A stretch of 64,000 nt of DNA from the NCBI RefSeq assembly GCF_002335445.1, contig NZ_BDME01000006.1:59528-123527 (forward strand), given 5' to 3'. The stretch comes from Lebetimonas natsushimae. Lineage in GTDB: Bacteria > Campylobacterota > Campylobacteria > Campylobacterales > Nautiliaceae. This document shows, in pieces, positions 2,688-37,106 of this stretch (position 1 is the stretch's first letter; each line of letters begins with the position of its first letter). The translations under genes were made by a program, and so were the position numbers. The notes below the pieces were generated by a model. It worked only from the letters and a program-made list of their open reading frames with translations. It searched no databases and had not been told where the DNA came from.

Positions 2688-3145
2688 GTTTGGTAGATAA
2701 ATATAAAAAACTAGATGAATTGGTGGTTAAAGACAAAGAAGAGGAGGTTAATGATACTTTTAAGGAAATTTTGGAAGAGACTTTTAAAAAAATAAATAAA
2801 AAAATAGAAGAACAAAAAACACTTGATATAAAAAATCCTGAAGAAAAAATGGCAGTTAGAGCTATGATGGAATATATGCTTGAACTTTGGGATGAGGGTG
2901 CTACAGATGAAGCTAAACAGGTCGGATATGATATGGTTTATTTAGTGGATGATGCCAGACTAAAAGAAATGTTTACACTTTTTGTAATAGGAATATTGGC
3001 CGGTTTAAGCCTTGATAAATTTTTTGAAAAATATATTGATTTAAGAGAAATTTATGAAGATTACTTTTTTACCGGTTTTAATGATGAAATAGATGAACTT
3101 GTAGAAAAATATAAAGACCAGTTTGTAAAAGAGTTTCAAGAGTGA
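2684..3145 (+). CDS. Conserved-looking helical protein of unknown function
   Basis: I do not recognise this 153-residue protein. It is acidic, lysine- and glutamate-rich and predicted mostly helical, with a possible short coiled coil at residues 20-50 and no signal peptide or clear membrane segment. A moderately hydrophobic helix lies near residues 97-112 (FTLFVIGILAGLSL). It begins inside the aminotransferase stop (ATGA overlap) and ends inside the murC start (GTGA overlap), so it is translated as part of that operon. The position suggests a cytoplasmic accessory role near cell-wall precursor synthesis, but nothing in the sequence gives an activity. Confidence 0.8.
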   Translation: MSLVDKYKKLDELVVKDKEEEVNDTFKEILEETFKKINKKIEEQKTLDIKNPEEKMAVRAMMEYMLELWDEGATDEAKQVGYDMVYLVDDARLKEMFTLFVIGILAGLSLDKFFEKYIDLREIYEDYFFTGFNDEIDELVEKYKDQFVKEFQE

Positions 3146-4446
3146 AATTATATTTTATCGGTATTGGCGGGATTGGGCTCAGTGCACTGGCTAGATGGTG
3201 CAAAAAAAAAGGTTTTGATGTTAAAGGAAGTGATATACATTCTACCCCGTTAACCCAAAAACTACAAAATGAGGGAATAGAAGTTTTTATTCCTCAAAAA
3301 GAAGAAAATATCAATGGTGATATAGATTTAATTGTATATACTGCAGTTGCAAGGGAAAATAATCCTGAAAGGGTTGCAGCCAAGAAAAAAGGTGTTAAAA
3401 TTCTTAGCAGACGTGAATTCCTACCATTTATATTGAATGATAAAAAAGTTCTTTCAGTTTGTGGAGCGCATGGCAAAAGCACTACTACTGCAATATTAGC
3501 TTCTATTTTACCTAATGCTAATGCTTTAATTGGAGCAGAAAGTAAAGATTTTAATTCAAATGCAAAATTTAGTAACAGTGAATTAATGGTGTTTGAAGCG
3601 GATGAAAGCGACGGTAGTTTCATAGATTCAAACCCCTATGTTGCGGTTGTTACAAATACTGAACCCGAGCATATGGAATTTTATAATCACGATTTAGAGC
3701 TTTTTTATTCTCATTATGAAAAATTTTTAAAAAAAGCACAAATCAGGGTGGTAAACGGAAATGATGAATTTATAAAAAAACTTGATTTACCTATGAAAAA
3801 AGTGTATTTAAAAGATGCAAGAAATATAAGATACGAACTGAGGAATGATTTGCCAAAAACAATATTTGAATACAGGGGATATGAATTTGAGGTATATGGG
3901 TTTGGCGAACATTTGGTTTTGGATGCCCTTCTTGCAATCGAAGCTGCGAATGAGTTTATTTCACTTAATGAGATTGCAAAAAATATTAAAAATTATAAGG
4001 GAATCAAAAAAAGATTCGATATCCTGCAGCAGGATGATGATTTTATTTTAATCGATGATTACGGACACCATCCTACAGAAATAAAAGCGACATTAAGCAG
4101 TGCAAAAAAATATGCCATGCTTAACGGCATAGATAAAATAACTGCAATCTGGCAGCCTCATAAATATTCAAGAACTGTTGATAATCTTCAAGGCTTTATA
4201 GAATGTTTTGAAGGGGTTGATGAACTCGTGATATTGCCTGTATGGTCGGCAGGGGAGGAAAAAGTTGAAATTGATTTTGAAAAATATTTTGCAAAATATA
4301 AACCTATTTTTGCTGATAAAATTAAAGCTGACAGAAAAAATATTATGTTAATTAGAGATGATGAAATTATAAAAAAAATTAATGATGGTTTGATAATAGG
4401 TTTTGGAGCGGGGGATATTACTTATCAGTTGAGGGGAAATAAATAG
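3142..4446 (+). CDS. murC: UDP-N-acetylmuramate--L-alanine ligase
   Basis: MurC adds L-alanine to UDP-MurNAc, the first peptide step of cytoplasmic peptidoglycan precursor synthesis. At 434 residues it has the family's usual size. The N-terminal Rossmann part shows GIGGIGLSALARW, and the Mur-ligase ATP loop is GAHGKST at residues 108-114; the central EADESDGSF and NTEPEHME stretches and the C-terminal DDYGHHPTEI motif are also typical. The start is GTG at 3142, overlapping the previous stop as GTGA. It is the last housekeeping gene before the SIR2-HerA insert, which follows after 17 bases. Confidence 0.95.
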   Translation: MKLYFIGIGGIGLSALARWCKKKGFDVKGSDIHSTPLTQKLQNEGIEVFIPQKEENINGDIDLIVYTAVARENNPERVAAKKKGVKILSRREFLPFILNDKKVLSVCGAHGKSTTTAILASILPNANALIGAESKDFNSNAKFSNSELMVFEADESDGSFIDSNPYVAVVTNTEPEHMEFYNHDLELFYSHYEKFLKKAQIRVVNGNDEFIKKLDLPMKKVYLKDARNIRYELRNDLPKTIFEYRGYEFEVYGFGEHLVLDALLAIEAANEFISLNEIAKNIKNYKGIKKRFDILQQDDDFILIDDYGHHPTEIKATLSSAKKYAMLNGIDKITAIWQPHKYSRTVDNLQGFIECFEGVDELVILPVWSAGEEKVEIDFEKYFAKYKPIFADKIKADRKNIMLIRDDEIIKKINDGLIIGFGAGDITYQLRGNK

Positions 4447-4463
4447 GAAAAAGGTCAATTTAA

Positions 4464-5780
4464 ATGATTTATTTTTATAAAGGTAAAAATAATATTTTAG
4501 AAAACAATAAAAAAAATACTCATAATAAAAATTCTGATAAAGAAGAAGATTATAAAAATATTATTCATATTATTCAAAAAGAATTTTCAAAAGTTTTAGA
4601 TGTTCAGAATTTATCTTTTTTAATCGGTGCTGGGTGTTCTTCTTTTTTAAATAAAAATGATGAAGAAATAGGTGTTCCCACAATGCAACCTATGGCAAAA
4701 GAATTTTATAGTAATCTTTCTAACGAGGATAAAAATTTTATTAAGAATGAAATAAAAATTAATATTAATGATGAACAATTAGAAAAAAATTTAGAAAAAT
4801 TTTTAGAAATTTTATATGCTTATAAATTTTTATTAGATAATCAAGCTCAAGATATAAAAAAAATTTCAAATTTAATTAATAAAACAAAAGAATTTATATT
4901 TAATAAATGTAATATTAAATCTAAAGAAGTAATTGAAATTTATAAAAAATTTTATAGAAAACTTTTATATAGAGATAATAATTTAACTAAAACTAATATC
5001 TTTACTACTAATTATGATATTTTTAATGAAATTGCTCTAGAACAATTAGGTGTTATTTATACAAATGGATTTACTGGATTTATTGAGAGGTATTTTAATC
5101 CTTCAACTTTTAATTATGCTTATGCTGAACAATTAGATTTAAATAATAAAAAATGGAATGTTATAGATAATTTTATTTATTTATATAAATTACATGGCTC
5201 TATTACATGGATAGAAGATGAAACAACAAATGCATTATTTAAAATAAAAGAGATTCAAAAGCCACAATTTCAAGAAGAAAATAATTATATGATTTATCCA
5301 ACTCCAATGAAACAAAATTCAAGCTTTGGTTCTCCGTATTCTGATTTATTTAGAGAGTTTCAAAAAAAATTAATGCAAAATAATAATGTCTTAGTAACGA
5401 TAGGTTATAGTTTTAGTGATGAGCATATCAATAATTTAATATATCAAGCTTTGACAATTCCTACTTTTAGATTAATAATTATAGGAAATTATAAAAGTAA
5501 AAATATTAATAAATTATTTAATTTAGATGATTCAAGAATATGGATTATTGGAGAAGAAAATAGACTTCTTTCAAAACTAAGGAAAATGAAATTTGATCAT
5601 TTCTCAAAACAACTAACTTTTAAAGACTTTGATTACCAATGGACTGAGTTTTGTAAGAAGTCTAATGAAATACCCTTACATTTTTTTAATAAATTTATTG
5701 ATGAAATTATGCCTGATATGGAAGAAGAAAAAATTGAAGAGAAAATAAAACAAATTTCTAAATTGTTTATGGGGCAATAA
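4464..5780 (+). CDS. SIR2-like NADase component of a SIR2-HerA defence pair
   Basis: This 438-residue protein carries a SIR2-like domain. The NAD-binding loop GAGCSS is at residues 55-60, TTNYD at 181-185, a LHGS with the likely catalytic histidine H244 at 243-246, and GYSFSDEH at 314-321. Residues 1-45 form a Lys/Asn-rich extension. In known bacterial SIR2 defence proteins such domains deplete NAD+ on phage infection; here that is inferred from the motifs and from the partner. The TAATG overlap with the HerA-type ATPase shows a two-gene unit. Base composition is much poorer in G+C than the flanks (8 G/C in 4501-4560), which suggests acquisition by transfer. The start at 4464 has only a weak AAGG upstream. 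Confidence 0.88.
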   Translation: MIYFYKGKNNILENNKKNTHNKNSDKEEDYKNIIHIIQKEFSKVLDVQNLSFLIGAGCSSFLNKNDEEIGVPTMQPMAKEFYSNLSNEDKNFIKNEIKININDEQLEKNLEKFLEILYAYKFLLDNQAQDIKKISNLINKTKEFIFNKCNIKSKEVIEIYKKFYRKLLYRDNNLTKTNIFTTNYDIFNEIALEQLGVIYTNGFTGFIERYFNPSTFNYAYAEQLDLNNKKWNVIDNFIYLYKLHGSITWIEDETTNALFKIKEIQKPQFQEENNYMIYPTPMKQNSSFGSPYSDLFREFQKKLMQNNNVLVTIGYSFSDEHINNLIYQALTIPTFRLIIIGNYKSKNINKLFNLDDSRIWIIGEENRLLSKLRKMKFDHFSKQLTFKDFDYQWTEFCKKSNEIPLHFFNKFIDEIMPDMEEEKIEEKIKQISKLFMGQ

Positions 5781-7711
5781 TGTATTTTGATAATAAAGAA
5801 AGAGTAATAGGAAAAGTAATTTCAATAAATAGTGAAAAGTTTGGAGTGGAATTATTAAAAGGAATAAAAAATTTTAATATAAATGGTTTTGATGATATTC
5901 ATTATTTCGCACAATTAAATAGTTATGTTGTAATACCTTATCAAAATTTTTATATTGTGTGTGAAGTAATTAGTATTAGAGAAAAAGATGAAAATAATTA
6001 TCAAACTTCAAAAGAACAAGAAATTAACAAAATTTTATCTAATAAATATTTAGATGTTTATCCTTTAGGAACTATTAAAGATAATAAATTTGAATTTGGA
6101 GTTTCTGTTTTTCCTACTCTATATAGCGATGTTTTATATATAAAAGATGAAGAATTAGATATTATTTTTAACATTTCAAGTATAGAAGAAGAAATAGATG
6201 GAAATAATACTAAATTAAATTCACTTTCAATAGGAATGTCTTCAGTATTTAAAGATTATGATATAAAAATAAATATTGATAATTTTTTTGGTTCTCATAG
6301 TGCAGTTTTAGGAAATACTGGAAGTGGAAAATCTTGTACTATTGCTTCAATGCTTCAACAATTATTTAAAAAGAAAAATTTTTCTGCAACTGGAGCGACT
6401 TTTATTATTTTTGATACAAATGGAGAATATAAAAAAGCATTTGAAAAATTAAAAACGCAAAATAATGATGTAGATATTTATTATACATCTTTAAATGATG
6501 AAAAAAATCCTTTTTATTTACCACATCATTTTATGAATATTGAAGAATGGGAACTTTTATTACAAGCGAGTGAAAAATCTCAATTGCCTATTTTAAGAAA
6601 CGCTTTAGGATTTGCCACTTTATTTGAAGAAAATAATAATGAAAATTATAAGAAAAAAATAAAAAATCATATTATTGCTTCTTGTATTTTAGAAATTTAT
6701 ACTTCAGAACCATCTCCTATAGCTAAATATCAGAAGATTAAAAGTTTATTTAATAAAGCTGAATTTGATAATTATGATACAATAGAAGGATATAATGGTC
6801 AATATGGAAATTTTTCAGATGAGAAAAAAGAAGCAGAATTTTTAAATGTTATGAAAGAAAATTTATTAAATGAAGAATTTAAAATTCCTAATTATAAAGA
6901 AGGGGTATATTTTGAATTTGATAAATTAAGTGAATATTTGGAATTAGCAATTTTGTATGAAGAAGCAAATGGAAATAAACAAATACGGAATTATTGTGCT
7001 CCTTTATTGACACGGACTGAAATTATTCAACATAGAGAAGATTTTAAATTTTTAAAAAAAGAAAATGAAAAAATTGAAGATTATTTGTTGAAATTTTTAG
7101 GAATTGTAAAAATGCCTATTTTTAAAGAATTTAGCCAATATATTAAAAAAACTCAAATTACAATTATTGATTTAAATGAAGTAGAAGATGAAATTGTAGA
7201 AATAATTTCATCTGTATTTACAAGGATTATATTCGATTTTTTAAAAAAACAAAAAGATAGAAATGTTTTTCCGATAAATTTAATTTTAGAAGAAGCACAT
7301 AGATATATTGCATATGATTCTAAACGAACATTTTTAAGAGCAAGTCAAATTTTTGATAGAGTAGCTAAAGAAGGTAGAAAATATGGCCTTTTCTTAATGA
7401 TTTCATCTCAAAGACCAAGTGAATTATCTAAAACTGTTTTATCCCAATGTAATAATTTTATTGTCCATAGAATTCAAAATCCTGATGATTTATTGCATAT
7501 AAGACAAATGACTCCTCATATTTCTGATACAATTTTAAAAAAATTGCCATCTATCCCTACACAACATGCTTTAATTTTTGGTAATGCAGTTAATATACCA
7601 GCTTTATTTAAAGTCAATGAGGCTAATCCTTTACCAAAAAGTGATAATAATGAAATATCTAAAAATTGGTTTGTTGAAAAAAATAAAGATTATAAATTTT
7701 TATTTGATTAA
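5780..7711 (+). CDS. HerA-type ATPase/translocase, partner of the SIR2 protein
   Basis: This 643-residue protein has the HerA/FtsK-like layout: an N-terminal beta-rich HAS-type barrel (roughly residues 1-130), Walker A GNTGSGKS at 178-185, a long central insertion, Walker B LILEEAH ending near residue 507, the ISSQRPSEL sensor-type motif, and a C-terminal segment (QHALIFGNAVNIPALF) typical of HerA. In SIR2-HerA systems the ATPase forms a hexamer that binds the SIR2 protein and governs its NADase or nuclease activity; that is family knowledge. It starts in the SIR2 stop codon. Its stop lies 12 bases inside the convergent recG 3' end. No NurA nuclease is nearby, so a stand-alone DNA-end resection role is less likely. 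Confidence 0.9.
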   Translation: MYFDNKERVIGKVISINSEKFGVELLKGIKNFNINGFDDIHYFAQLNSYVVIPYQNFYIVCEVISIREKDENNYQTSKEQEINKILSNKYLDVYPLGTIKDNKFEFGVSVFPTLYSDVLYIKDEELDIIFNISSIEEEIDGNNTKLNSLSIGMSSVFKDYDIKINIDNFFGSHSAVLGNTGSGKSCTIASMLQQLFKKKNFSATGATFIIFDTNGEYKKAFEKLKTQNNDVDIYYTSLNDEKNPFYLPHHFMNIEEWELLLQASEKSQLPILRNALGFATLFEENNNENYKKKIKNHIIASCILEIYTSEPSPIAKYQKIKSLFNKAEFDNYDTIEGYNGQYGNFSDEKKEAEFLNVMKENLLNEEFKIPNYKEGVYFEFDKLSEYLELAILYEEANGNKQIRNYCAPLLTRTEIIQHREDFKFLKKENEKIEDYLLKFLGIVKMPIFKEFSQYIKKTQITIIDLNEVEDEIVEIISSVFTRIIFDFLKKQKDRNVFPINLILEEAHRYIAYDSKRTFLRASQIFDRVAKEGRKYGLFLMISSQRPSELSKTVLSQCNNFIVHRIQNPDDLLHIRQMTPHISDTILKKLPSIPTQHALIFGNAVNIPALFKVNEANPLPKSDNNEISKNWFVEKNKDYKFLFD

Positions 7712-9445
7712 TTGATTCAAATATCTTTTAACATCCTCCAAAATTTTTAAATCCTTTGTTTCATCAAAATAATTAAATTTTTCTCCGCTTTGTTTTGTTC
7801 CATCTAATAAATCACCCGATTTTCTAAATTTTAAATCAAGCTCGGCTATTTTAAATCCATCAAGCGTTTTTGAAAATTCAATTAGTCTTTTATTGTTTTT
7901 ATCGTGAGTGTATAAAAAGCAGTATCCTTTTTGTCCATATCTTCCGACTCTTCCTCTTAGCTGATGCAGTGTGGCAAGTCCGAGCCTTTCAGCTCCCACT
8001 ATTACAATGGTGGTCAGTCTAGGCAGTGAAATTCCAACTTCAATAACGGTGGTTGTAATTAAAATATTTCCTTTTTCCCTGAATTCCACCAAAACATCTT
8101 CTTTGTTTTTGTCTTTTCCGTGGGTTATATATACTCCGTCAAAATATTTAAGCCAGAAATCTTTCCCTTCTTCTATGCTTTGATAATTAAAATTTTGAGA
8201 CTCTTCTACTAAAGGATAAACTATTACAATTTGATTTCCAAGAGTTATTTCTTTTTGAATATGGGCTATTAAATCTTTAAAATCGCTTTTATCAATTATT
8301 CTGGTTTCAATATTTTTTTTAAAAGGCAGTTCTTTAATTAAACTGACATTTACAAAACTGCTGAGAATCAAAGCCTGGGTTCTTGGGATCGGTGTTGCGC
8401 TGAATTGAAAATAATGGGGTAAAATATTGCCGTTGCTTGTGAGTTTTTCAAGTTTTGCCCTCTGGTTTGTTCCAAACCTGTGCTGCTCATCTACCATTAC
8501 GGCATTAAGTTTGGGTAAATTTTGATATAAAAGAGCGTGAGTTCCTATCAAAAGATCTGCATTTTTTAAATCTTCTTCTGTAAATTGACTTTTTTGTGTA
8601 ACCAATACCACTTTAAATAATTTTCCATTTTCCATTCTCCATTTTCCATTTAAATATTTATTTGCTTCTTCGTAAATCTGATTGGCGAGTATTGAAGTCG
8701 GGGCCATAATGGCACTTTTTTTTGCCATAAAAGCAGTTGCAAGCATTATAATTGTTTTACCGCTTCCGACATCCCCTATAACAACCCTTCTGGCCTGCAT
8801 GGGGTTTGATAGGTCATTTTTTATTTCATTTATTACTTTAATCTGGTCGTTTGTAAGGGTAAAAGGAAGAGAATTTATAAAAGGGGTTGGGTCTGATGTT
8901 ATAGGATTTGCCGGAAAAGTCTTTTTTTTGTTCTGAAGCTTATATAAATATAAAAAAATTTCCGTCCATTTAAGTGCATAATTTATTTTTTTTTCGTCTA
9001 TATCATCAGGAGAAAGTGGGAAATGCATTTTTATAAGCGTTTTTGCAATATTTTCAGGCAAAAGTTTTATGTTTTCATATGTTACATGTTTTTTTATTTC
9101 ATTTTTTATTTTGGTAGATGAATAAACGGGAACTATTTCATTGATTCTACTTATAGGTTTTGGCTGGATTAACTGGTTGTTTCTAATTTCCCCTCTAATG
9201 AAGAGAGTTTTTCCTGTTTTAAATACAGCCTGATGCCATTTTTTAAAAACAAAAAACACTCCCCACATAATCTGGTTTATATTTTTTAAAAAAAATTTGA
9301 TTCTGGTTGTTTTAGAGGATTTTTGAATATCAAGTATTTCAGCCTCAAAAGCTTGAGACCTGTTTAATATATAGGGATATAAATGATTGTCTTCCCAATC
9401 TTTAGGTTTTATAATGGCAAGTTCAATCGGTTTTAGATTATTCAT
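7700..9445 (-). CDS. recG: ATP-dependent DNA helicase RecG
   Basis: RecG is a superfamily 2 helicase that remodels stalled forks and branched DNA. Visible are an OB-fold wedge near the N-terminus, Walker A GDVGSGKT, the DEQH box (VMVDEQHRFG), motif III FSATPIPRT and motif VI GRVGRYGQKG. At 581 residues it is short compared with E. coli RecG (693) but close to other epsilon forms. An in-frame heptad array (8623-8650) adds about ten residues (NGKWRMENGK) between the Walker A helix region and the VTQK strand. It overlaps the M16-like gene by 8 bases upstream and HerA by 12 bases downstream. The shared stop region may have been altered by the insert. Confidence 0.94.
   Translation of the reverse strand: MNNLKPIELAIIKPKDWEDNHLYPYILNRSQAFEAEILDIQKSSKTTRIKFFLKNINQIMWGVFFVFKKWHQAVFKTGKTLFIRGEIRNNQLIQPKPISRINEIVPVYSSTKIKNEIKKHVTYENIKLLPENIAKTLIKMHFPLSPDDIDEKKINYALKWTEIFLYLYKLQNKKKTFPANPITSDPTPFINSLPFTLTNDQIKVINEIKNDLSNPMQARRVVIGDVGSGKTIIMLATAFMAKKSAIMAPTSILANQIYEEANKYLNGKWRMENGKLFKVVLVTQKSQFTEEDLKNADLLIGTHALLYQNLPKLNAVMVDEQHRFGTNQRAKLEKLTSNGNILPHYFQFSATPIPRTQALILSSFVNVSLIKELPFKKNIETRIIDKSDFKDLIAHIQKEITLGNQIVIVYPLVEESQNFNYQSIEEGKDFWLKYFDGVYITHGKDKNKEDVLVEFREKGNILITTTVIEVGISLPRLTTIVIVGAERLGLATLHQLRGRVGRYGQKGYCFLYTHDKNNKRLIEFSKTLDGFKIAELDLKFRKSGDLLDGTKQSGEKFNYFDETKDLKILEDVKRYLNQLIK
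8623..8650 (-). repeat. Heptad array, four AATGGAR units, inside recG
   Basis: On the minus strand the bases read as four tandem 7-mers (three AATGGAA, one AATGGAG). The array lies in frame within recG and encodes a short Trp/Met/Asn/Gly-rich peptide. The same unit occurs five times inside the bioV-like gene at 18464-18498. Confidence 0.85.
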
Positions 9446-26061: not shown

Positions 26062-28128
26062 TTGGTAAGTATCAGAAAAGAATTCCACAAGACAGTTGTA
26101 ATAGGGTTTATATTAGCTTTTATAGTGCTACTGATTTTGTATTATGTTATTACTAAAATAGTTGTGGAACAAAAGCTTACAGCAGCAAGGCTTGAGGCTA
26201 AAACAATTATTTATTATAGACATTATATATCTTTTGTGGCTCCGAAAGTCAAAATAGTGGATTTAAATTTATCGCCTTTTGCACTTACACCTGCTTATGT
26301 AACAGATCAGGTGGCCAAGAAATTAAGGGATGATAAAATTTATTATATAAAACAGGTATCGGATAATTACAGAAATCCGTTGGATAAACCGAACAATATT
26401 GAATTAGAAGCTATAGAATATTTTAAAAAATATAAAGATAAAAATGAATATTATAAAACATATAAACCTGATAAAAATTTTAACAAACAGTATTTTTTTT
26501 ATGCTAAAAAACTTACAATAGAAAAATCTTGTCTTAAATGTCACGGAATTCCTTATAAAGATGTGCCCGCCGATATTTATAAAAAAATTGTTAAAATTTA
26601 TGGAAACGGGGCTTTTGGATACAAAAAAGGTGATGTAAGAGGTGTTCTTTCTATAGTCTTTCCTTATGAAAAAGTAATAATGAATGTAAATAAAATTTTT
26701 GCAATTATAATAGGAATAGGAGTACTTTTTTTTATAACCGGCCTTTTAATATTTTTTAAAGTGAATGAAAAAATTCAGGAAGACATTTATAAAATTTTAG
26801 AACATTTTAAATTTACAAAAGAGGGTAGATATCCTATATTAAAAGATCAAATGAAATTTATTGAATTTAAAGAATTGAAAAATCAGATTAACAAAACATT
26901 TTTTAAACTAAAAAAATATCAGGGTTATATTTATTATAAATACTATTATTACCCATTAACTAATCTGCCGAATAGGAATAAATTTTTGGAATTGGCAAGT
27001 GAAAAAAAATATCCCATTGTTTTGATTAATACAGATAAATTTAAAGAAATAAATTTTTATTTTGGCAGTGAAATAGGTGATAAATTAATAAAAAATATTG
27101 CGCTGAGACTTAAAAATTTAAGAAAAAAATATAGTTTTAAACTTTATCACATTGATATAGATGAATTTGCCTTAATATTTAAAAATGAACAAATTTCTAA
27201 AAAAGAATTGCAAGAAATTATAGAAGATATTATTAATTTTTTGGAAGAGCCTTATAATATTGATTCTAATAAGATAATTGTCAGATTTAGAGCAGGCGTT
27301 AGTTTATATAAAAAAGATTATATCAGAGCTAATATTGCACTTGATATGGCAAAAGAACTTAAAAAAGATATAGTTTTTGGCAGTGAAATAGAAAATTTAG
27401 ATAAATATAAAGAACATCTGAAATGGCTTAAAAAACTTCAGTGGGCATTAAAGAATGATAAAATCATTCCTTTTTATCAACCAATAGTAGATAAAAATAA
27501 AAACATTGTCAAATATGAGGCTTTGGTCAGATTAATAGATGAGAATGGAAAAGTGGTAAATCCTTTTTATTTTTTAGATGTTGCTAAAAGATCAAGATAT
27601 TATTTAGAAATAACAAAGAGGGTAGTTAACAAAGCCATTGAAAAGGTTATAGAAAAAGATACAGCCGTTTCAATAAATTTGACACTTGAAGATATAGAAG
27701 AAAGGGAAATGAGAAATTTTATTTTTGAAAAACTTAATTTATTAAGAGATAAATCAAAAATAACTTTTGAAATAGTTGAAAGTGAAGATGTCAGGGGAAA
27801 TAAATTAGTAAAAAACTTTTTATATGAAATTAAAACTACAGGCGCATTAATATATATTGATGATTTTGGAAGCGGCTATTCTAATTTTGATTACTTAATC
27901 AAATTGCATCCTGATGGGGTTAAAATTGATGGAAGTTTAATAAAAAATATATTGAATGATAAAAATTCCCAAATTATTGTAAAGACAATAGTTTCTTTTG
28001 CAAAAGAGATGAATATAAAAGTTATTGCTGAATTTGTTGAAAATAAAGAAATTTTTGAATATCTAAAAAAATTGGATGTTGATTATTTTCAGGGATATTA
28101 TTTTTCTCCTCCAAAAGGAGATATATAA
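26062..28128 (+). CDS. Membrane sensor with DUF3365 heme-site domain, degenerate GGDEF and EAL domains
   Basis: The 688 residues comprise TM1 (about 12-31), a periplasmic DUF3365 (Tll0287-like) domain with a c-type heme site C157-L-K-C160-H161, TM2 (about 214-234), a GGDEF domain and a C-terminal EAL domain. The GGDEF signature reads IDIDEF near 364-369, so cyclase activity is unlikely. The EAL domain looks intact: E486-A-L, D600-D-F-G-S-G-Y-S, KIDGSLIKN and FVENKEI. I infer a phosphodiesterase of cyclic di-GMP controlled by heme redox state or ligand. The start is TTG at 26062 with no good ribosome site, so the exact start is less sure. Confidence 0.9.
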   Translation: MVSIRKEFHKTVVIGFILAFIVLLILYYVITKIVVEQKLTAARLEAKTIIYYRHYISFVAPKVKIVDLNLSPFALTPAYVTDQVAKKLRDDKIYYIKQVSDNYRNPLDKPNNIELEAIEYFKKYKDKNEYYKTYKPDKNFNKQYFFYAKKLTIEKSCLKCHGIPYKDVPADIYKKIVKIYGNGAFGYKKGDVRGVLSIVFPYEKVIMNVNKIFAIIIGIGVLFFITGLLIFFKVNEKIQEDIYKILEHFKFTKEGRYPILKDQMKFIEFKELKNQINKTFFKLKKYQGYIYYKYYYYPLTNLPNRNKFLELASEKKYPIVLINTDKFKEINFYFGSEIGDKLIKNIALRLKNLRKKYSFKLYHIDIDEFALIFKNEQISKKELQEIIEDIINFLEEPYNIDSNKIIVRFRAGVSLYKKDYIRANIALDMAKELKKDIVFGSEIENLDKYKEHLKWLKKLQWALKNDKIIPFYQPIVDKNKNIVKYEALVRLIDENGKVVNPFYFLDVAKRSRYYLEITKRVVNKAIEKVIEKDTAVSINLTLEDIEEREMRNFIFEKLNLLRDKSKITFEIVESEDVRGNKLVKNFLYEIKTTGALIYIDDFGSGYSNFDYLIKLHPDGVKIDGSLIKNILNDKNSQIIVKTIVSFAKEMNIKVIAEFVENKEIFEYLKKLDVDYFQGYYFSPPKGDI

Positions 28129-28135
28129 AATATTT

Positions 28136-28144
28136 TGATAAAAT
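28136..28144 (+). promoter_or_regulatory. Extended -10 promoter of hisD
   Basis: TGATAAAAT, 20 bases before the hisD ATG at 28165, in the 36-base gap after the EAL gene. Confidence 0.45.
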
Positions 28145-28164
28145 TCTTAAAAAAAAGGTTTAAT

Positions 28165-29454
28165 ATGTTAGTTTTAAAAACAGATGCGGCAAATTTCAGA
28201 GTTAAATTTGAAGAAATTTTAAAGCGTGGTAAAATGGATATTGAAAATGTGGAAGATATTGTGAAAAATATTATAAATGAAGTAAGAGAAAGAAAAAATA
28301 AAGCATTATTTGAACATATTTCAAAATTTGATAAGTGGACTCCTATAAAAGATGATGATTTAGTAATTAGTAAAGATGATATGAAAAAAGCATATGAAAA
28401 TTTAGACGAAGATTTAAAATGTGCTTTGCATTTAGCATATGACAGAATTAAAGCATATCATGAAAAACAACTTCCAAAAACATGGTTGACTTTTGAGGAT
28501 AACGGAACAATTCTTGGACAGAAAGTAACTCCTGTAGAAAGGGCCGGTGTATATGTACCGGGTGGTAAAGCATTTTATCCTAGCAGTCTTTTAATGAATG
28601 TTATTCCGGCAATTGTTGCGGGTGTTGAAGAAATAGTGGTAACTACCCCTGTTATTGAAAATAAACCGAATCAGTTACTGCTTGCTGCTTTGTATATTTG
28701 TGGTATGCCAAAAGCATTTAAAGTAGGAGGGGCAAGTGCTGTTGCAGCAATGGCTTATGGGACAGAGACTATCCCTAAAGTTGATGTAATTACAGGTCCA
28801 GGCAATATTTTTGTAGCAACAGCTAAAAAACTAGTATACGGGGAAGTGAATATTGATATGATAGCGGGACCAAGTGAAATTGGAATTATTGCAGATGAAA
28901 GTGCAAAACCGAATTATATGGCAATAGATCTTTTATCTCAGGCTGAGCATGACGAAATGGCAAGTTCTATTATGATAACCCCATCAGAGAAACTTGCTCT
29001 TAAAACTAAAGAAAAAATATATGAATTTTTAGAAGAACTTGAAAGAAAAGATATAGCTGAAAAATCAATTGAAGAGAGGGGTGCAATAATTATTTGTAAA
29101 AATATAGATGAGGCAATCGAACTTATGAATGAAATTGCTCCTGAGCATTTGGAAGTGGTAACTAAAAACCCATTTGAGCTTTTACCAAAAATAAAAAATG
29201 CCGGGGCAATTTTTCTAGGGGAAAACACTCCAGAACCAATAGGTGATTATATAGCAGGGCCGAATCATACATTGCCTACAGGCGGAAGTGCCAAGTTTTA
29301 TTCTCCATTAAACGTTGAAATTTTTATGAAAAAAAGTTCAATTATTTCTTTTTCAAAAGAAGCTATTGAAAAAATGGGAAAAGATTGTGCCTTGTTAGCC
29401 AAAACCGAAGGACTTACAGCCCATCAGAAATCAGTTCTTGAAAGACTTAAGTGA
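28165..29454 (+). CDS. hisD: Histidinol dehydrogenase
   Basis: HisD carries out the last two NAD-dependent oxidations of histidine synthesis. The 429 residues show [13 protein letters not shown], the family signature around [12 protein letters not shown], the zinc ligands of [16 protein letters not shown] with the catalytic Glu-His, and [10 protein letters not shown]. The ATG at 28165 follows AAAAAAGGTTTAAT; the upstream in-frame TTG at 28135 falls in the promoter and is rejected. The stop TGA overlaps the GTG start of the small membrane protein. No other his gene is in the window. Confidence 0.96.
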
Positions 29455-29882
29455 ATTTTTTTAACACATTTGATTTTATAGAAAATTTTTTTCCAAACAC
29501 TCCTCTTGCTTTTTTGATTTTTCTTCTCTCTTTTTTTTTACTGACGACTATATTTGTTTTAATAACTGCAAAATTAATTAAAAAAGATAAAAAATTAAAA
29601 AAAAACAATCAGAAAAAGCAGCTCTCAATTGAAAATTTAATAGAAATTGCTAGAAATAAAAAATCTAATATTAACGATTTAGTATTTGCATTTAAATATT
29701 TTAATGAAAACTTTAAAGTTAAACAGTTTCCAGATAAAGCATTTGATTTTTTTAAATTAATACTTACACATAAAAACAGAGGTAAAGTTTTATTTGATAT
29801 TTTTCATAATAAAACAGTAAAATTAAATAAAGATTTTGAAGATCAATTAAATAAAATAGAAAAAGAATGTTTAAATAGATAA
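29451..29882 (+). CDS. Unknown single-pass membrane protein downstream of hisD
   Basis: This 143-residue protein starts at GTG 29451, inside the hisD stop (GTGA). It has one membrane helix (about residues 18-42, FLIFLLSFFLLTTIFVLITA), then a strongly basic stretch (KKDKKLKKNNQKK) and a helical cytoplasmic domain. The basic segment after the helix predicts a periplasmic N-terminus. The overlap ties its expression to hisD. I do not recognise the domain; epsilonproteobacterial genomes carry small proteins of this design but I cannot name a function. Confidence 0.75.
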   Translation: MNFFNTFDFIENFFPNTPLAFLIFLLSFFLLTTIFVLITAKLIKKDKKLKKNNQKKQLSIENLIEIARNKKSNINDLVFAFKYFNENFKVKQFPDKAFDFFKLILTHKNRGKVLFDIFHNKTVKLNKDFEDQLNKIEKECLNR

Positions 29883-29904
29883 AGATAGAGATTAAACTCT
29901 ATCT
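29875..29904 (-). terminator. Hairpin at the end of rpsO, possible terminator
   Basis: On the minus strand AGATAGAG, a 6-base loop and CTCTATCT form an 8-bp perfect stem (29883-29904) across the rpsO stop codon, followed by TTATCTATTT. The T tract is interrupted, so this is only a moderate terminator candidate. Confidence 0.45.
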
Positions 29905-30167
29905 CTAAGATTAAGTGCAGAAATTACTTCAAGATATTTATCGTGATCTTTTCTTTTTAAATATCTCATAAGTCTTTTTCTTTGTCCAACCAATTTTAAT
30001 AAACCTAATCTGCTTGAATGGTCGTGTTTGTGTGTTTGTAAATGTTCGTTAATTTGATTGATTCTTTCAGTCAATAGTGCGATTTGAACCGCAGGACTTC
30101 CAGTATCATTTTCATTATTTCCGAATTTAGCGATAATTTCTCTTTTTTTCGCCGAATCCAAAGCCAT
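29892..30167 (-). CDS. rpsO: 30S ribosomal protein S15
   Basis: S15 binds 16S rRNA early in small-subunit assembly. The 91 residues cover the four-helix protein: [48 protein letters not shown] in pieces, all family hallmarks. A strong AGGAGG lies 7 bases before the ATG. Upstream is a complete divergent promoter. In Campylobacter the rpsO-Rrf2-flhA neighbourhood is similar, here interrupted by a sensor kinase gene on the other strand. Confidence 0.97.
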
Positions 30168-30213
30168 GTTAGCCTCCTGATTGGTAAATTTTAGTTTTCA
30201 AACTAAGAATGAA

Positions 30214-30242
30214 AGTATATCTTTTTTTCTGCAAAAATGCAA
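30214..30242 (-). promoter_or_regulatory. Sigma-70-type promoter of rpsO
   Basis: On the minus strand TTGCAT (30237-30242) and TATACT (30214-30219) are separated by 17 bases. It lies back-to-back with the sensor kinase promoter at 30247-30255. Confidence 0.55.
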
Positions 30243-30246
30243 ATTT

Positions 30247-30255
30247 TGATAAAAT
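30247..30255 (+). promoter_or_regulatory. Extended -10 promoter of the sensor kinase gene
   Basis: TGATAAAAT ends 18 bases before the ATG at 30274, leaving a leader of about ten bases that holds the AAAAAAGGA ribosome site. Confidence 0.45.
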
Positions 30256-30273
30256 TATATAAAAAAGGATTGT

Positions 30274-32082
30274 ATGAAAAAACTGATATTTTTCTTTTTA
30301 ATTAGTTTTTCTTTTGCTACAAATGTTTTAATTTTAAATTCATATTCAGTAAAATTAAAATGGACAAGGAATGAACTTCAAGGAATTTTGGAAGAATTAA
30401 AAAATAAAGATTTAAATATTTATATTGAATTTATGGATACTAAAATATTTAGACCGACACCTAAAAGACTTAAATATTTATATGAATATTTATTTCAAAA
30501 ATATAGAAAAATACCTTTTGATATTGTAATTGTTACAGATGATAATGCTTTAAATTTTGTAAGAGAGCATTTAAATTCTCCTATTTTTATCAATGCCAAA
30601 GTATTTTTTGCCGGTATTAATAATTTGGATTTGGTTAATATTTTAGATAGAAACAGGTTTTGCGGTGTTTTTGAAAAAAAAGAACCACTTGTAAATTTAA
30701 ATTTTGCCAGAAAAATCGTGGATTTAAAAACTTTTTATGTAGTGGGGGATGATTCTACTTCTGCAAAAATTGTTATGAATCAGTATAAAAAAGCATATAA
30801 AAATTTTAAAAATATCGAATTTATTTATATTAATGAAAAATATTTAAGTCACATTCTGTATTATTTTAAAGATAATTTTTCTAAAAATTCAGCAATGATG
30901 CTTATTAATCCTTTTAGTTTTATTTTTAACGAACAACATATTTCTTATGAAAAAGCAATACAGTTATTATCAAAAATTTATAACAGACCAATTATCGTGC
31001 ATACCGATATACTTACAAACATTAAAAATTCAAACATTGTAGGCGGCAGGGTAAACGATTCTAAAAATCAGGGTAAAATTGCTGCAGTTAAAGTAAAAAA
31101 ATATTTAAACGGTGAAAAAATAAATAATATAGGGTTTACTTTTGAAAAAGCCAATAAAATGTATCTTAATGTTTTGAATTTAGAAAAATTTGGAGTAAAT
31201 GCATATGATTTAGGATATAAAGAAGCTATTTATGTAAATGCGCCTCAAACTATTTGGGAACAATATAAAAATCAATTAATTTTTGTAATTTTGTTTATAG
31301 TTTATTTGATTTTAATCATATTTATTTTAATATATAAAAACAGACTAAAAGAAAAATTAAATATAGAACTTCAAAAAAGAATAGATAAGGCGGTAAAAGA
31401 TATACAAAAAAAAGACAGACTCTTAGCAAATCATTCTAAATTTTTGGCAATGTCTGAAATGATAGGTGCTGTTGCCCATCAGTGGAGGCAGCCTTTGAAT
31501 GCATTGGCTCTTAATTTACAGGTATTACCCGATATTAAAGATAATGAGAAATTTGAAAACTTAATAAATAAAAATTTAAAAATTATAGAATTTATGTCTA
31601 AAACAATTGATAATTTTATTAATTTTTTTAAATCAACCGAAAATATTGTTAATTTTTCCGTTAAATCAGCTATATTTGAAACGATAGAATTAATTGATGC
31701 CCAGTTAAAATCTAAAGGTATAAAAATTATTATTAAAGGAGAGGATTTTTATATAAAAGGGAATAAAAATCAATTTAGGCAGGTAGTTTTGAATCTGATA
31801 AACAATTCTAAAGATGCTTTTTTAAATCAAGATGAGAAAGAAATAAAAATAATTTTAAAATCCAAAATAAAAAAAATTTATATTTTGGATAACGCTGGAG
31901 GAATAGATAATAAAATATTAGAAAGAATATTTGAACCATATTTTACAACAAAAGATTCTGGCAGTGGGCTTGGTTTATATATTAGTAAAATAATTTTAGA
32001 AAAATATTTTAATGCTACCTTGGAAATAAAAAATACAAAAATTGGAATAATTAATATAATTTCTTTTAATAGAAAAAAATAA
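30274..32082 (+). CDS. Sensor histidine kinase with periplasmic ABC-binding-protein-like domain, orphan
   Basis: The 602 residues contain a signal/anchor (1-16), a periplasmic domain like the ABC substrate-binding (TrpX/YtrC-type) fold (about 17-320, with ILNSYS at its start and GGRVNDSKNQG near its end), a membrane helix (about 331-350), a coiled segment, a dimerisation domain with phospho-acceptor H402 in HQWRQPLN, and a HATPase domain with N-box N510-N-S-K-D and G-box GSGLGLYI at 563-570. It should autophosphorylate when a small ligand binds outside. No response regulator is beside it, so its partner is elsewhere. The nearest downstream gene is the Rrf2 regulator, which has its own promoter. 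Confidence 0.9.
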   Translation: MKKLIFFFLISFSFATNVLILNSYSVKLKWTRNELQGILEELKNKDLNIYIEFMDTKIFRPTPKRLKYLYEYLFQKYRKIPFDIVIVTDDNALNFVREHLNSPIFINAKVFFAGINNLDLVNILDRNRFCGVFEKKEPLVNLNFARKIVDLKTFYVVGDDSTSAKIVMNQYKKAYKNFKNIEFIYINEKYLSHILYYFKDNFSKNSAMMLINPFSFIFNEQHISYEKAIQLLSKIYNRPIIVHTDILTNIKNSNIVGGRVNDSKNQGKIAAVKVKKYLNGEKINNIGFTFEKANKMYLNVLNLEKFGVNAYDLGYKEAIYVNAPQTIWEQYKNQLIFVILFIVYLILIIFILIYKNRLKEKLNIELQKRIDKAVKDIQKKDRLLANHSKFLAMSEMIGAVAHQWRQPLNALALNLQVLPDIKDNEKFENLINKNLKIIEFMSKTIDNFINFFKSTENIVNFSVKSAIFETIELIDAQLKSKGIKIIIKGEDFYIKGNKNQFRQVVLNLINNSKDAFLNQDEKEIKIILKSKIKKIYILDNAGGIDNKILERIFEPYFTTKDSGSGLGLYISKIILEKYFNATLEIKNTKIGIINIISFNRKK

Positions 32083-32088
32083 ATTGGG

Positions 32089-32094
32089 TATAAT
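32089..32094 (+). promoter_or_regulatory. -10 box of the Rrf2/flhA unit
   Basis: A perfect TATAAT in GGGTATAATTTTG ends 18 bases before the Rrf2 ATG at 32113, in the 30-base gap after the kinase gene. Confidence 0.45.
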
Positions 32095-32112
32095 TTTGAA
32101 AAAAGGTTTAAT

Positions 32113-32529
32113 ATGCTATTTACAAAATCAACAGCGTATACTCTGCAGGCTTTGATGGAACTTGCTAATTTTGATAAACCGGTAGATGTTGCAAAATTAG
32201 CGGAAATCACATCACTTCCAAAGCCTTTTTTGGCGAAACTATTGCAGACCCTTTCAAAAAAAGGTTATGTAAAATCTTTTAAAGGTATCCATGGGGGATT
32301 TTTACTTGAAAAAGCTCCAAAAGATATTAGGATTTTAGAATTGTTTAAAATTATTGAAGATAAGGACGCTTTAATATTTTACTGTTCCAAAGCACCTGAA
32401 AACTGTGTAAGAAACAGGGCTGATATATGTTGTGTTAGGCCTTTTTTTGTTTTTTTAGAAGATAAATTAAATTATATTTTAAAAGATATGACTTTAGAAG
32501 ATGTTATAAGGATGAAATCTGATAAATAG
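32113..32529 (+). CDS. Rrf2-family transcriptional regulator, probable Fe-S sensor
   Basis: The 138-residue protein has the Rrf2 winged helix (residues about 1-70: [41 protein letters not shown]) and a C-terminal dimer helix. Between them lie the cysteines of [10 protein letters not shown] and ICCVRPFF, spaced like the Fe-S ligands of IscR/NsrR-type members, so binding of an Fe-S cluster that senses iron, oxygen or nitric oxide is likely. It directly precedes and overlaps flhA, so it is cotranscribed with a flagellar export gene. Its target is not visible here. Confidence 0.88.
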
Positions 32530-34690
32530 AATAAAAAATTCACTTAAAGTATTAAGTGAAGTAACTGATTTAGGTGTTGTAGCTTTTGTTTTTGCAATAC
32601 TTTTAATTATAATAGTTCCACTACCCAGTGGAATATTAGATTTTTTCTTAACAATTTCTTTATCTGTCGGTATTTTGATATTACTACTTAGTCTTTATAT
32701 TCCAAAACCTACCGATTTTACAACATTTCCTACATTAATATTGATAGTTACTCTTTATAGATTGTCATTAAATGTAGCTACAACAAGAATGATTTTATCC
32801 AAAGGATATGAGGGACCGAATGCTGTAAGTAAAATAATTTCAGCTTTTGGGGAATTTGTAGTTGGCGGTAATTATATTATAGGAATTATTGTATTTATTA
32901 TTTTGGTAATTATAAATTTTATGGTTATTACTCAAGGTTCCACAAGGGTTGCTGAAGTTGCTGCAAGATTTACACTTGATGCACTGCCTGGTAAACAGAT
33001 GGCAATTGATGCAGATTTAAATGCCGGGCTTATTGATGAAAATGAAGCAAAAAAAAGAAGAATGGAACTTATCCAAGAAGCCAATTTTTATGGGGCTATG
33101 GATGGGGCAAGTAAATTTGTAAAAGGTGATGCGATTGCAGGAATTATTATTACTCTTGTAAATATAATTGCCGGGCTTTTAATAGGTATTTTTCAGCATA
33201 ATATGGATATTTCACAGGCCGCTTCAACATACACTATTTTGACAATAGGTGATGGACTCGTAGGACAAATCCCGGCTCTTATGACTTCAACTGCAACAGG
33301 TATTATTATTACAAGAGCAAGTAAGGATGAAAGTAATTTTGCAGAGGGTGTTATAAAGCAGCTGATGAGAGATTATAAAGTTGTTTTGATTGTCGGTATT
33401 TTGCTTATTTTTATGGCATTCATTCCAGGTTTTCCAAGCGGAAGCATGATATTTATCGGGATTGTTTTTTTAATAACAGGATATTTGATGATGGAAACAC
33501 AAAAAGGTGTGGACCCTATTGCCTCAATAATAGCAAAATTTAGAAAAAAACCACCACCTCAGCCTAAAAAAACAGCTGAAGAACTTGAACAAGAAGAAAA
33601 ACCTAAAAAATCACCTGAAGAGCTTGCTAAAGAAGAAGAACAGGTATTGGAAAATATATTAAAAGTTGAAATACTGGAGCTTGATATTGGTTATCAGCTT
33701 ATTAAAATTGCCGATCCCAACCAGGGCGGTGATTTGCTTGAGAGAATTAAAACCATGAGAAAAAAAATAGCAAGTGATTTCGGGTTCCTAGTACCCCAAA
33801 TAAGAATAAAAGACAATATTCAGCTTCAACCAAACGAATATCAGATTTTATTAAAAGGTGTTGAAGTTGCAAGAGGAGAGGTTTACCCGGATAAATATTT
33901 GGCAATGTCAACTCCTATGGTAATTGAAGAAATTGAAGGGATAGAGGTAAAAGAACCGGCTTTTGGAATAGATGCGATTTGGATTGATGAAGATAAAAAA
34001 GAAGAAGCTTTAATGAACGGATATACCGTTGTGGACGCATCAACGGTAATTGTTACTCATTTAAGTGAAATAATTAAGAAATATGCAGAAGAGCTTCTAA
34101 CTCGTCAGGATACACAAGCTCTGCTTGATAGAGTCAAAAAAGATTTTCCTGCCATTGTTGATGATGCCTTAAAAGTTGCAAATGTCGGATTGATTCAGAG
34201 AGTTTTAAAATCCTTGCTTCATGAAAAAATACCCATTAAAGATATGATTACAATACTTGAGACAATTGCAGATATAGCTGAATATACCAAAAATATCGAC
34301 ACTATTGTAGAACATGTAAGGAGTAATTTAAGCCGTGTTATTACAAAACTTTATGAAAGTGAAGACGGTACATTAAAACTTGTGACTTTTGATACCCAGA
34401 CGGAGCAGTTTTTACTTTCGAAACTGCAGCAGCAGGGGGATAACAAACAGTTTTTACTGACTGTTTCCGAAATGAATAAACTTGTTGAAGAAATAAGCAA
34501 TGCTGCAGCTGAAATTTTAAATAAAGGTATTGCCCCTGTTGTATTGATTGTAGACCCGTTAATCAGAAAGCCTCTCGCTGAAATTCTTGAAAGATTCGGG
34601 GTTGATGTAGTGGTACTTTCCCATGCTGAAATAGACCCTAATGCAAAATTTGAAGTACTGGGAAGTATAAGTATAAATTTCAAGGACTGA
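32519..34690 (+). CDS. flhA: Flagellar export gate protein FlhA, with non-standard start
   Basis: FlhA is the membrane export gate of the flagellar type III apparatus. The protein shows about eight TM segments in the first half, [19 protein letters not shown] (FHIPEP signature), [22 protein letters not shown] in parts, then the cytoplasmic FlhA-C domain. The conserved N-terminus ([31 protein letters not shown]) is open back to base 32516, but no ATG, GTG or TTG occurs before TTG 32675, which would remove about 52 residues and the first membrane helix. CTG at 32519 sits 6 bases after AAGGA (32508-32512) and ATA at 32522 is next; I place the start at 32519, giving 723 residues, the usual length. 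Confidence 0.9.
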
Positions 34691-34694
34691 TTGT

Positions 34695-36347
34695 ATGTTA
34701 AACAAAGTGGAAAAAGAATTAGTTAAAAAAATGTTTTTTTACCCTGTTTTTATAGTGGTAATTTCATTTATATTGGTCGTTTTTTCATCTTATTATACGT
34801 TATATACATTTAAAAGCAAAGAAGTTGATAAAAATACTAAAATATTAATAAATAATAAAAAAAATTATTTAAAAGAAAATGTAATAAATTTATCAAAAGA
34901 TATTGATAACGCTTTACAATTCAGTTTGGAAGAGACTAAAAAAAATGTAAAACACAGAGTTTATTTAATATATTATGCGATTAAAAGCCTTTATTCTTTA
35001 AATAAAAATAAAACGTTTATTATAAATTATTTAAACACTTTAAATACTTATTTAAAAAATCATTATATTTTTGCATATGATACAAACGGAATTGTTAAAA
35101 CTCATATATTAAAATCATTTATAGGAAAAAATACTAAAAAAATTTATTTAATCAATCATATGTCTGTATTTGAAAGAAATAAAAAAATTTTAAATAAAAA
35201 TAATGAAGGATTTATAAAAAAATATTTTTATAAACCTAATAATAAAAATAAAAAATTTTTAAAAATAGATTTTATCAAATATATACCTGAGCTGAATTTA
35301 ATTATTGGTTCAGGAGAATATGTGGATGAAATAAAAAATAAATTAGAAAAGCAGATTTTCCAAAGAATAATGATGAAAAGATACGGGAATGATTATTATT
35401 TTTTTATAATTAAAAAAGATGGAACATTAATATTAAATCCTACTTATAAAAGCGCGATAGGAAAAAATATTTTAAATTTAAAAGATATAAACGGAAAATA
35501 TTTTATAAAAGAAATGATAAAAAAAGCACTGGAAAACAAAAACGGATCATTTGTTGTTTATAAATGGATAAATCCGAAGACCGGCAAAATAGAAAAGAAA
35601 ATATCATATGTGCTTTTTAACAAAAGCATAGATGCGATAATAGGCAGCGGTTTATATATTCAGGAGGATATAGCAAAAAACATAAACGATATTAAAAAGA
35701 ATTTGAACGAAGAATTTAAAATATTTTATAGAAATTTAGTAATCATATTTTTAATTATTTTAATATTCTCTGTGTTTTTGTCATTTATTTTATTTAGAAA
35801 ATTGAAAAATGTTTTTTTTATATATGATAAATTATTAAAAGAAGAAAAGAAGAAAATTGAGTATGAATCTTTACACGACCCTTTAACCAAAATTGCTAAC
35901 AGAAGATTTTTTAATCAGAAAATTAAAGAAGAAATTTTAAGGGCGAAACGCTATAACCATACTTTTTCAATTGCAATGGTTGATATTGATTATTTTAAAA
36001 AAATAAATGATACTTATGGGCATGATATAGGGGATTTGGTTCTTAAAAAAATGGCTTCTTTTATTAAAAGACATATAAGAAGTACAGATATTTTTGCGAG
36101 ATGGGGCGGAGAAGAGTTTATGCTTATTTTCCCTTATACAGATTTACAAAAAGCTAAACAAATTTGTGAAAAACTGAAAAAAGAGCTGCAGGAGAATGAG
36201 TTTGTTCAAAGGCCGGTAAAATTTACAATAAGCTGCGGTATTACTGAATTTAGAAAAGATAACAATATAGAAAGTATTATAAAAAGGGCTGATGAAGCTT
36301 TATATGAGGCAAAAAACGGTGGGAGAGACAGAATAGTTCTCAAATAA
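34695..36347 (+). CDS. Membrane diguanylate cyclase with cache-type sensor
   Basis: The 550 residues comprise TM1 (about 15-37), a long periplasmic part with one or two cache-like folds (a GTLILNPTYKSAIGKNI segment and SFVVYKWINPKTGKIEKK near residue 275), TM2 (about 351-370), and a C-terminal GGDEF domain. The domain looks active: DPLTKIANRRFF, DIDYFKKINDTYGHDIGD and G471-G-E-E-F475. An inhibitory-site RxxD (R462-S-T-D465) lies at the usual spacing. It should make cyclic di-GMP in response to a small external ligand. It starts 4 bases after flhA, so it probably shares its transcript. Confidence 0.92.
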   Translation: MLNKVEKELVKKMFFYPVFIVVISFILVVFSSYYTLYTFKSKEVDKNTKILINNKKNYLKENVINLSKDIDNALQFSLEETKKNVKHRVYLIYYAIKSLYSLNKNKTFIINYLNTLNTYLKNHYIFAYDTNGIVKTHILKSFIGKNTKKIYLINHMSVFERNKKILNKNNEGFIKKYFYKPNNKNKKFLKIDFIKYIPELNLIIGSGEYVDEIKNKLEKQIFQRIMMKRYGNDYYFFIIKKDGTLILNPTYKSAIGKNILNLKDINGKYFIKEMIKKALENKNGSFVVYKWINPKTGKIEKKISYVLFNKSIDAIIGSGLYIQEDIAKNINDIKKNLNEEFKIFYRNLVIIFLIILIFSVFLSFILFRKLKNVFFIYDKLLKEEKKKIEYESLHDPLTKIANRRFFNQKIKEEILRAKRYNHTFSIAMVDIDYFKKINDTYGHDIGDLVLKKMASFIKRHIRSTDIFARWGGEEFMLIFPYTDLQKAKQICEKLKKELQENEFVQRPVKFTISCGITEFRKDNNIESIIKRADEALYEAKNGGRDRIVLK

Positions 36348-37061: not shown

Positions 37062-37066
37062 CCTTA

Positions 37067-37075
37067 TGGTATAAT
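37067..37075 (+). promoter_or_regulatory. Extended -10 promoter of metY
   Basis: TGGTATAAT (TGn plus TATAAT) ends 31 bases before the metY ATG. The gap to cmoA is 45 bases, too short for an S-adenosylmethionine riboswitch. Confidence 0.5.
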
Positions 37076-37106
37076 TTTTAATAATTTTACTAAAAAAGGC
37101 ATTGTA

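What the first reader, a model, noticed from the sequence alone, without database searches (positions are those of the whole stretch)
4464..7711. SIR2-HerA (Nezha-type) defence pair in a housekeeping neighbourhood
The SIR2-like protein keeps GAG, TTNYD, LHGS and GYSFSDEH motifs, and the ATPase keeps HerA Walker motifs; the genes share a TAATG stop-start. SIR2-HerA pairs are an established phage-defence type, but they are little studied in Campylobacterota and the N-terminal Lys/Asn-rich extension (1-45) of this SIR2 is unusual.
Basis: partly seen in the sequence, partly recalled or inferred. Interest (0 to 1): 0.75.

Follow-up and report, generated by a model that had tools for sequence, protein, structure and literature searches.

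The report
SIR2-HerA defence pair carrying in-frame mini-transposon
The two genes are an ordinary, probably horizontally acquired SIR2-HerA anti-phage system, but the SIR2 gene carries a 102-base mini-transposon inserted so that it is read through as 35 extra amino acids, and relatives of that element sit the same way in other bacterial defence genes.

Summary
The pair is real. SIR2 (4464-5780) and HerA (5780-7711) match PADLOC SIR2 and HerA models at 9e-133 and 3.5e-254. They are adjacent in 15 of 16 orthologous loci (43-57% identity, mostly Bacteroidota), and NurA is absent from the genome. It is a SIR2-HerA (Nezha-like) NADase defence pair, AT-rich and in a variable murC|recG site. The "unusual N-terminal extension" is a family feature (IxFYKGxENVLE...).

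The surprise is elsewhere. SIR2 codons 366-401 contain a 102-bp palindromic element (5562-5663) with exact 3-bp target duplications (AAT). All orthologs that can be compared lack it. Six further copies in three other genomes of the order are 102-103 bp, and each has an exact ANT duplication. 102+3=105 nt, so the frame is preserved; one frame is open in all six 102-bp copies. In-frame copies lie in a SMEK-NACHT protein, an AriA-like ATPase between two methylases and, decayed, a Cas8b. Relatives of the ATPase and Cas8b lack exactly that segment. This is a Rickettsia-palindromic-element-like coding MITE family, apparently undescribed here, found so far in defence genes. Whether the SIR2 still works, and whether the defence-gene bias is real, is untested.

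The parts
4464..5780 (+). SIR2-like NADase gene (438 aa including the 35-aa insert)
   Evidence: PADLOC PDLC04084 9.2e-133; Pfam SIR2_2 3.8e-11; PDB 8yhx 1.5e-35; orthologs 43-48%
4467..4598 (+). N-terminal segment, family motif IxFYKGxENVLE plus variable linker and helix; shared by orthologs, not an oddity
   Evidence: alignment A1; N-termini printed
5004..5018 (+). TTNYD, with N183 at 5010-5012 (catalytic Asn by homology)
   Evidence: invariant in 13 aligned sequences; N168 of V. cholerae Nezha SIR2, a conserved active-site Asn, is required for immunity (PMC11559045)
5190..5201 (+). LHGS, with H244 at 5193-5195 (catalytic His by homology)
   Evidence: H244 invariant in 13 aligned sequences; H227 of V. 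cholerae Nezha SIR2 is required for immunity (PMC11559045)
5562..5663 (+). 102-bp palindromic MITE-like element, read in frame as RLLSKLRKMKFDHFSKQLTFKDFDYQWTEFCKKS
   Evidence: inverted arms 5561-5581/5644-5664, 90% complementary; 102 bp with exact target duplication; absent from orthologs
5559..5561 (+). left target-site duplication AAT (codon N366)
5664..5666 (+). right target-site duplication AAT (codon N401)
5778..5782 (+). TAATG stop-start overlap joining the two genes
5780..7711 (+). HerA/DUF87 hexameric ATPase gene (643 aa)
   Evidence: PADLOC PDLC04102 3.5e-254; Pfam DUF87 2.6e-21; PDB 8yho 4.9e-51
6311..6334 (+). Walker A GNTGSGKS
   Evidence: invariant in 17 aligned sequences
7277..7300 (+). 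Walker B region NLILEEAH
   Evidence: N500, L501 and L503-H507 invariant in 17 aligned sequences
3142..4446 (+). murC, left flank of the insertion site
   Evidence: same order in relatives
7700..9445 (-). recG-like gene, convergent right flank, overlapping the HerA end
   Evidence: relatives

Best explanation
A two-gene SIR2-HerA (Nezha-like) anti-phage system that was acquired horizontally into the variable slot between murC and recG. By homology, HerA forms a hexameric ATPase that assembles with SIR2 and, on phage infection, SIR2 hydrolyses NAD+ and phage growth stops. After the lineage split from its Bacteroidota-type relatives, a 102-bp mini-transposon landed in codon 366 of SIR2, in a variable loop after the catalytic core. 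Because 102+3 nt is 35 codons and the element has one stop-free frame, the gene stayed open, so the protein most likely remains functional with a 35-residue insert. Shown: pair identity, motifs, element, target duplication, absence from orthologs, same element in other hosts. Inferred: NADase activity, complex, phage defence, horizontal origin, retained function.
For: Families. Adjacent HerA in 15 of 16 SIR2 ortholog loci. Catalytic N183/H244 conserved, equivalents required for immunity in V. cholerae Nezha (PMC11559045). GC 20-22% and GC3 8-11% against 32-36% and 20-24% in neighbours; HerA branches beside the Bacteroidota-rich clade, not with other genomes of the order. Variable or empty slot in relatives. 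Element: inverted arms, 102 bp with AAT/AAT, 35-aa gap in orthologs. Other copies with exact ANT duplications, same frame in other hosts, relatives of two of which lack it. No stop in the ORF and no frameshift.
Against: No activity, complex or phage test is possible here. The insert could damage HerA docking or stability; AlphaFold gave it pLDDT below 50 in an already weak model (mean 54). The element is single-copy in this genome and no transposase was found. The SIR2 gene, with the insert, could be on its way to being a pseudogene that happens to be open.
Confidence: 0.83

Rival explanations
1. The pair is a plain SIR2-HerA system, and residues 366-401 are just a lineage-specific loop whose DNA is palindromic by accident.
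For: The site lies in a loop whose length varies among orthologs. The window copy has mismatches in its arms.
Against: Seven copies in four genomes share ends and length, and each has an exact 3-bp ANT duplication (about 0.027 per site by chance). Near-identical copies lie outside large genes in G024. Relatives of two other hosts lack exactly this segment.
Confidence: 0.03
2. The HerA-like ATPase and SIR2 serve DNA repair or genome maintenance rather than phage defence.
For: They sit between housekeeping genes, next to recG. HerA works with NurA in archaeal end resection (abstract of PMC12977600).
Against: No NurA in the genome. Best HMMs are PADLOC SIR2 and HerA. The slot holds unrelated genes or nothing in relatives, so this is an accessory insert. 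Homologous pairs lie on plasmids, most of them mobilizable or conjugative.
Confidence: 0.05
3. The insertion has inactivated SIR2; the locus is a decaying defence system kept open by chance.
For: A 35-aa insert; very AT-rich gene; in one Bacteroidia MAG the orthologous SIR2 is interrupted by a transposase (L014).
Against: No stop or frameshift in either gene; catalytic and ATPase motifs intact. A much older in-frame copy is kept in an otherwise open Cas8b, suggesting that defence proteins can carry it for long.
Confidence: 0.2

Closest known systems
SIR2-HerA (Nezha) of E. coli, PDB 8j4u / 8su9
   Same: SIR2-like NADase plus adjacent HerA/DUF87 ATPase; conserved N and H; detectable by sequence and fold
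   Different: Sequence distant (phmmer 3e-24 for SIR2); the N-terminal FYKG segment marks this subfamily and the 35-aa insert is specific here
SIR2/HerA of PDB 8yhx / 8yho
   Same: Closest solved relatives of both proteins (1.5e-35 and 4.9e-51); a GxGCS motif as here
   Different: Only about 25% identical on the folded model; the insert lies beyond the aligned part
Bacteroidota-type SIR2-HerA pairs (e.g. L003 Cyclobacterium, L015 Chryseobacterium)
   Same: Same subfamily, same N-terminus, same gene order, 43-48% (SIR2) and 51-57% (HerA) identity
   Different: Lack the 35-residue insert
Rickettsia palindromic elements (RPE), Ogata et al. 2000/2002, as reviewed in PMC10969869
   Same: Short palindromic elements inserted in frame into protein genes, with a conserved peptide
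   Different: 102 bp rather than about 150; 3-bp ANT duplication; in another phylum; hosts found so far are defence genes rather than metabolic genes; sequence relation not tested
IS5-family (ISL2-group) insertion sequences
   Same: ANT-type 3-bp target duplication recalled for this group (own knowledge, not tested)
   Different: No transposase; parent element not found

Membership tests
SIR2-HerA (Nezha) defence system | SIR2-like protein with the Asn/His NADase pair | tested here: met
   N183 and H244 invariant in 13 aligned sequences; PADLOC SIR2 9.2e-133
SIR2-HerA (Nezha) defence system | Adjacent HerA/DUF87 ATPase with intact Walker A and B | tested here: met
   TAATG overlap; PADLOC HerA 3.5e-254; motifs invariant
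SIR2-HerA (Nezha) defence system | Gene pair conserved across genomes | tested here: met
   HerA adjacent to SIR2 in 15 of 16 ortholog loci (the 16th, L014, split by a transposase) and in eight other genomes of the order
SIR2-HerA (Nezha) defence system | Not a NurA-linked repair HerA | tested here: met
   No NurA in the genome, with positive controls
SIR2-HerA (Nezha) defence system | SIR2 fold | tested here: inconclusive
   Foldseek top hits are SIR2-HerA complexes (E 9e-8), but the model is poor (pLDDT 54, TM about 0.3)
SIR2-HerA (Nezha) defence system | 12:6 complex, NAD+ depletion, phage protection | not testable with these tools
   needs the bench
MITE (non-autonomous mini-transposon) | Terminal inverted repeats | tested here: met
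MITE (non-autonomous mini-transposon) | Fixed-size target-site duplication | tested here: met
   7 of 7 copies have an exact 3-bp ANT duplication, plus one decayed copy
MITE (non-autonomous mini-transposon) | Several copies at unrelated sites in one genome | tested here: met
   three in G024, two in G021; only one in the window's genome
MITE (non-autonomous mini-transposon) | A cognate transposase sharing the ends | tested here: inconclusive
   none seen in the four regions of G389 examined; other genomes not searched for one
RPE-like coding element | In-frame insertion encoding a conserved peptide in unrelated proteins | tested here: met
   SIR2, SMEK-NACHT, AriA-like ATPase, Cas8b
RPE-like coding element | Sequence homology to Rickettsia RPE families | not tested
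   RPE sequences not at hand; membership of that family is not claimed
IS5/ISL2-group derivative | ANT duplication and an IS5-type transposase | tested here: inconclusive
   duplication met, transposase not found

The most novel reading that the evidence does not exclude
A family of frame-preserving coding mini-transposons lives in Campylobacterota and is retained mainly in anti-phage defence genes, adding a conserved 34-residue peptide that may be tolerated, or even used, by these proteins. The peptide stays recognisable after the DNA palindrome has decayed (Cas8b).
Probability: 0.35. Interest if true: 0.75.

Novelty: new variant of a known kind. Interest (0 to 1): 0.55.

Why it matters
Coding palindromes were described as a Rickettsia peculiarity; a second such family in another phylum, with a length that keeps the frame after a 3-bp duplication, would make it a general route by which transposons donate protein segments. 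The recognisable hosts found so far are defence genes (SIR2-HerA, SMEK-NACHT STAND, AriA-like ATPase, Cas8b), which would tie mini-transposon spread to the traffic of defence genes and offers a direct test of what defence enzymes tolerate.

Tried and rejected
N-terminal extension as a novelty: rejected, it is a family segment. Repair HerA: rejected, no NurA. Element in viral contigs (none), plasmids (none) and phages (only a 40-nt AT-rich partial match, E 7e-3, taken as chance). Five viral contigs with the terminal repeat alone show no element. Parent IS in G389: regions with paired ends held cellular genes by eye, no transposase. Strict ends-only patterns missed the window copy because of its mismatches. 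Further peptide hits above E 1e-3 were not used as evidence. Type IIG enzyme in G349 (L084) and a 139-aa ORF in G016 (L085) resemble the peptide but lack a matching duplication; left as possible decayed copies. A PDB search did not settle L084.

Full report
Observation. All named motifs are there.

Identity. The first protein matches PADLOC SIR2 models (best 9.2e-133) and Pfam SIR2_2; the second matches PADLOC HerA (3.5e-254) and Pfam DUF87. By sequence the nearest solved structures are SIR2 family protein 8yhx and the E. coli SIR2-HerA complex 8j4u/8su9, and for HerA 8yho and the defence ATPases 9c1m and 8xau. AlphaFold models are weak (mean pLDDT 54 and 67), yet Foldseek puts SIR2-HerA and other anti-phage HerA complexes on top. 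No NurA exists in the genome, although the same search rings in seven of the 14 control genomes.

Relatives. A scan of genome contigs gave 16 ortholog loci, mostly Bacteroidota (43-48% identity for SIR2; the split SIR2 of L012 apart), with HerA next to SIR2 in 15 of them (51-57%); the sixteenth, L014, has a transposase in SIR2. In 150 genomes of the same order, more distant pairs were read in eight, and a ninth has a SIR2 cut by its contig end. The window's HerA branches beside the Bacteroidota-rich clade and not with the other pairs of its order (support 85/94; the former were sampled by similarity, so this is a lead). Both genes are poor in G+C (20-22%, third positions 8-11%) against 32-36% in neighbours. 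Between murC and recG, a congener has a cyclopropane synthase-like gene, other relatives an aspartate racemase-like gene, and two nothing (gene names by eye). So the pair is accessory and probably transferred; homologous pairs also lie on plasmids.

N-terminus. Residues 2-45 are not a special extension: orthologs share IxFYKGxENVLE, a variable charged stretch, and a helix leading to NLSFLxGxGCSS.

The insert. The ortholog alignment shows 35 extra residues near 366-401 of the window SIR2. The first-pass search had also matched that stretch to unrelated proteins. Its DNA is bounded by inverted arms 5561-5581 and 5644-5664. The element is 102 bp (5562-5663) between two AAT triplets. Six more copies, in three genomes of other families, are 102-103 bp, each flanked by an exact duplication of the form ANT (AGT, AAT, AAT, ACT, AAT, AGT); a 3-nt match is expected about 0.027 of the time. 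This is the signature of transposition. The own genome holds one copy only.

Frame. 102+3=105 nt, so insertion adds 35 codons and keeps the frame. Of six frames only one is free of stops in all six 102-bp copies, although the inner 66 bp of the three sequence types are only 50-64% identical; with the inner parts shuffled, the chance that all three stay open is about 0.001. Inside genes the duplicated triplet is a whole codon (Asn, Ser or Thr). The inner peptides are more alike than shuffled ones, although differences do not pile up at third codon positions alone, so selection on the peptide is not shown.

Hosts. In-frame copies lie in the window SIR2; a SMEK-NACHT protein (G011); an AriA-like AAA ATPase between two DNA methylase-like genes (G021, methylases named by eye); and, with decayed ends but an exact AAT duplication at 102 bp, a Cas8b (G081). 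Relatives of the ATPase and the Cas8b lack exactly this segment. In G024 two copies lie outside large ORFs and a third lies at the start of a 304-aa ORF of unknown family. Thus four of four recognisable hosts are defence or defence-like genes. The number is small and accessory genes tolerate insertions, so bias is a hypothesis. G021 has 8% estimated contamination and shares an identical element with G024, so one of these may be a stray contig.

Mechanism. By homology (PMC11559045) the pair makes a 12:6 SIR2-HerA complex that depletes NAD+ on infection; N183 and H244 are the expected catalytic pair. The insert lies after the last conserved strand of the core (RIWIIG) and before the C-terminal helix, in a loop of variable length, away from the catalytic motifs in sequence. 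I expect it to be tolerated; this is inference.

Novelty. The defence pair is a new member of a known kind. The coding mini-transposon resembles Rickettsia palindromic elements in behaviour (PMC10969869), but I found no description of such an element in Campylobacterota in the open library, which lacks many papers. The parent transposase is unknown; the ANT duplication recalls the ISL2 group of IS5 (own knowledge).

Noticed in passing
L014: 9240-10592: In a Bacteroidia MAG the orthologous SIR2 is interrupted by a transposase-like gene of about 450 aa; HerA downstream is intact.
   Followed up: partly
G389 (L131, L134, L136-L138): More than 50 matches to the same terminal repeat (AGACTTCTTGCAAAAC), many paired about 100 bp apart with an unrelated GC-richer centre: another mini-transposon family sharing the ends.
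   Followed up: partly
L084: about residue 494-528 of the ORF: Type IIG restriction-modification enzyme with a segment resembling the element's peptide, no matching duplication; perhaps a decayed copy.
   Followed up: partly
window 4447-7699 (murC|recG gap): The slot between murC and recG holds different genes in relatives (cyclopropane synthase-like, aspartate racemase-like, nothing): a small variable site in a housekeeping cluster.
   Followed up: yes
L072: 4203-4927: A second genome of the order (G087) has a Bacteroidota-type SIR2 start (FYKG motif), cut by the contig end right after a gyrA-like gene.
   Followed up: no
window 26062-40527: Several long, low-GC GGDEF/EAL-like sensor genes lie among housekeeping genes (by eye from the translations).
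   Followed up: no
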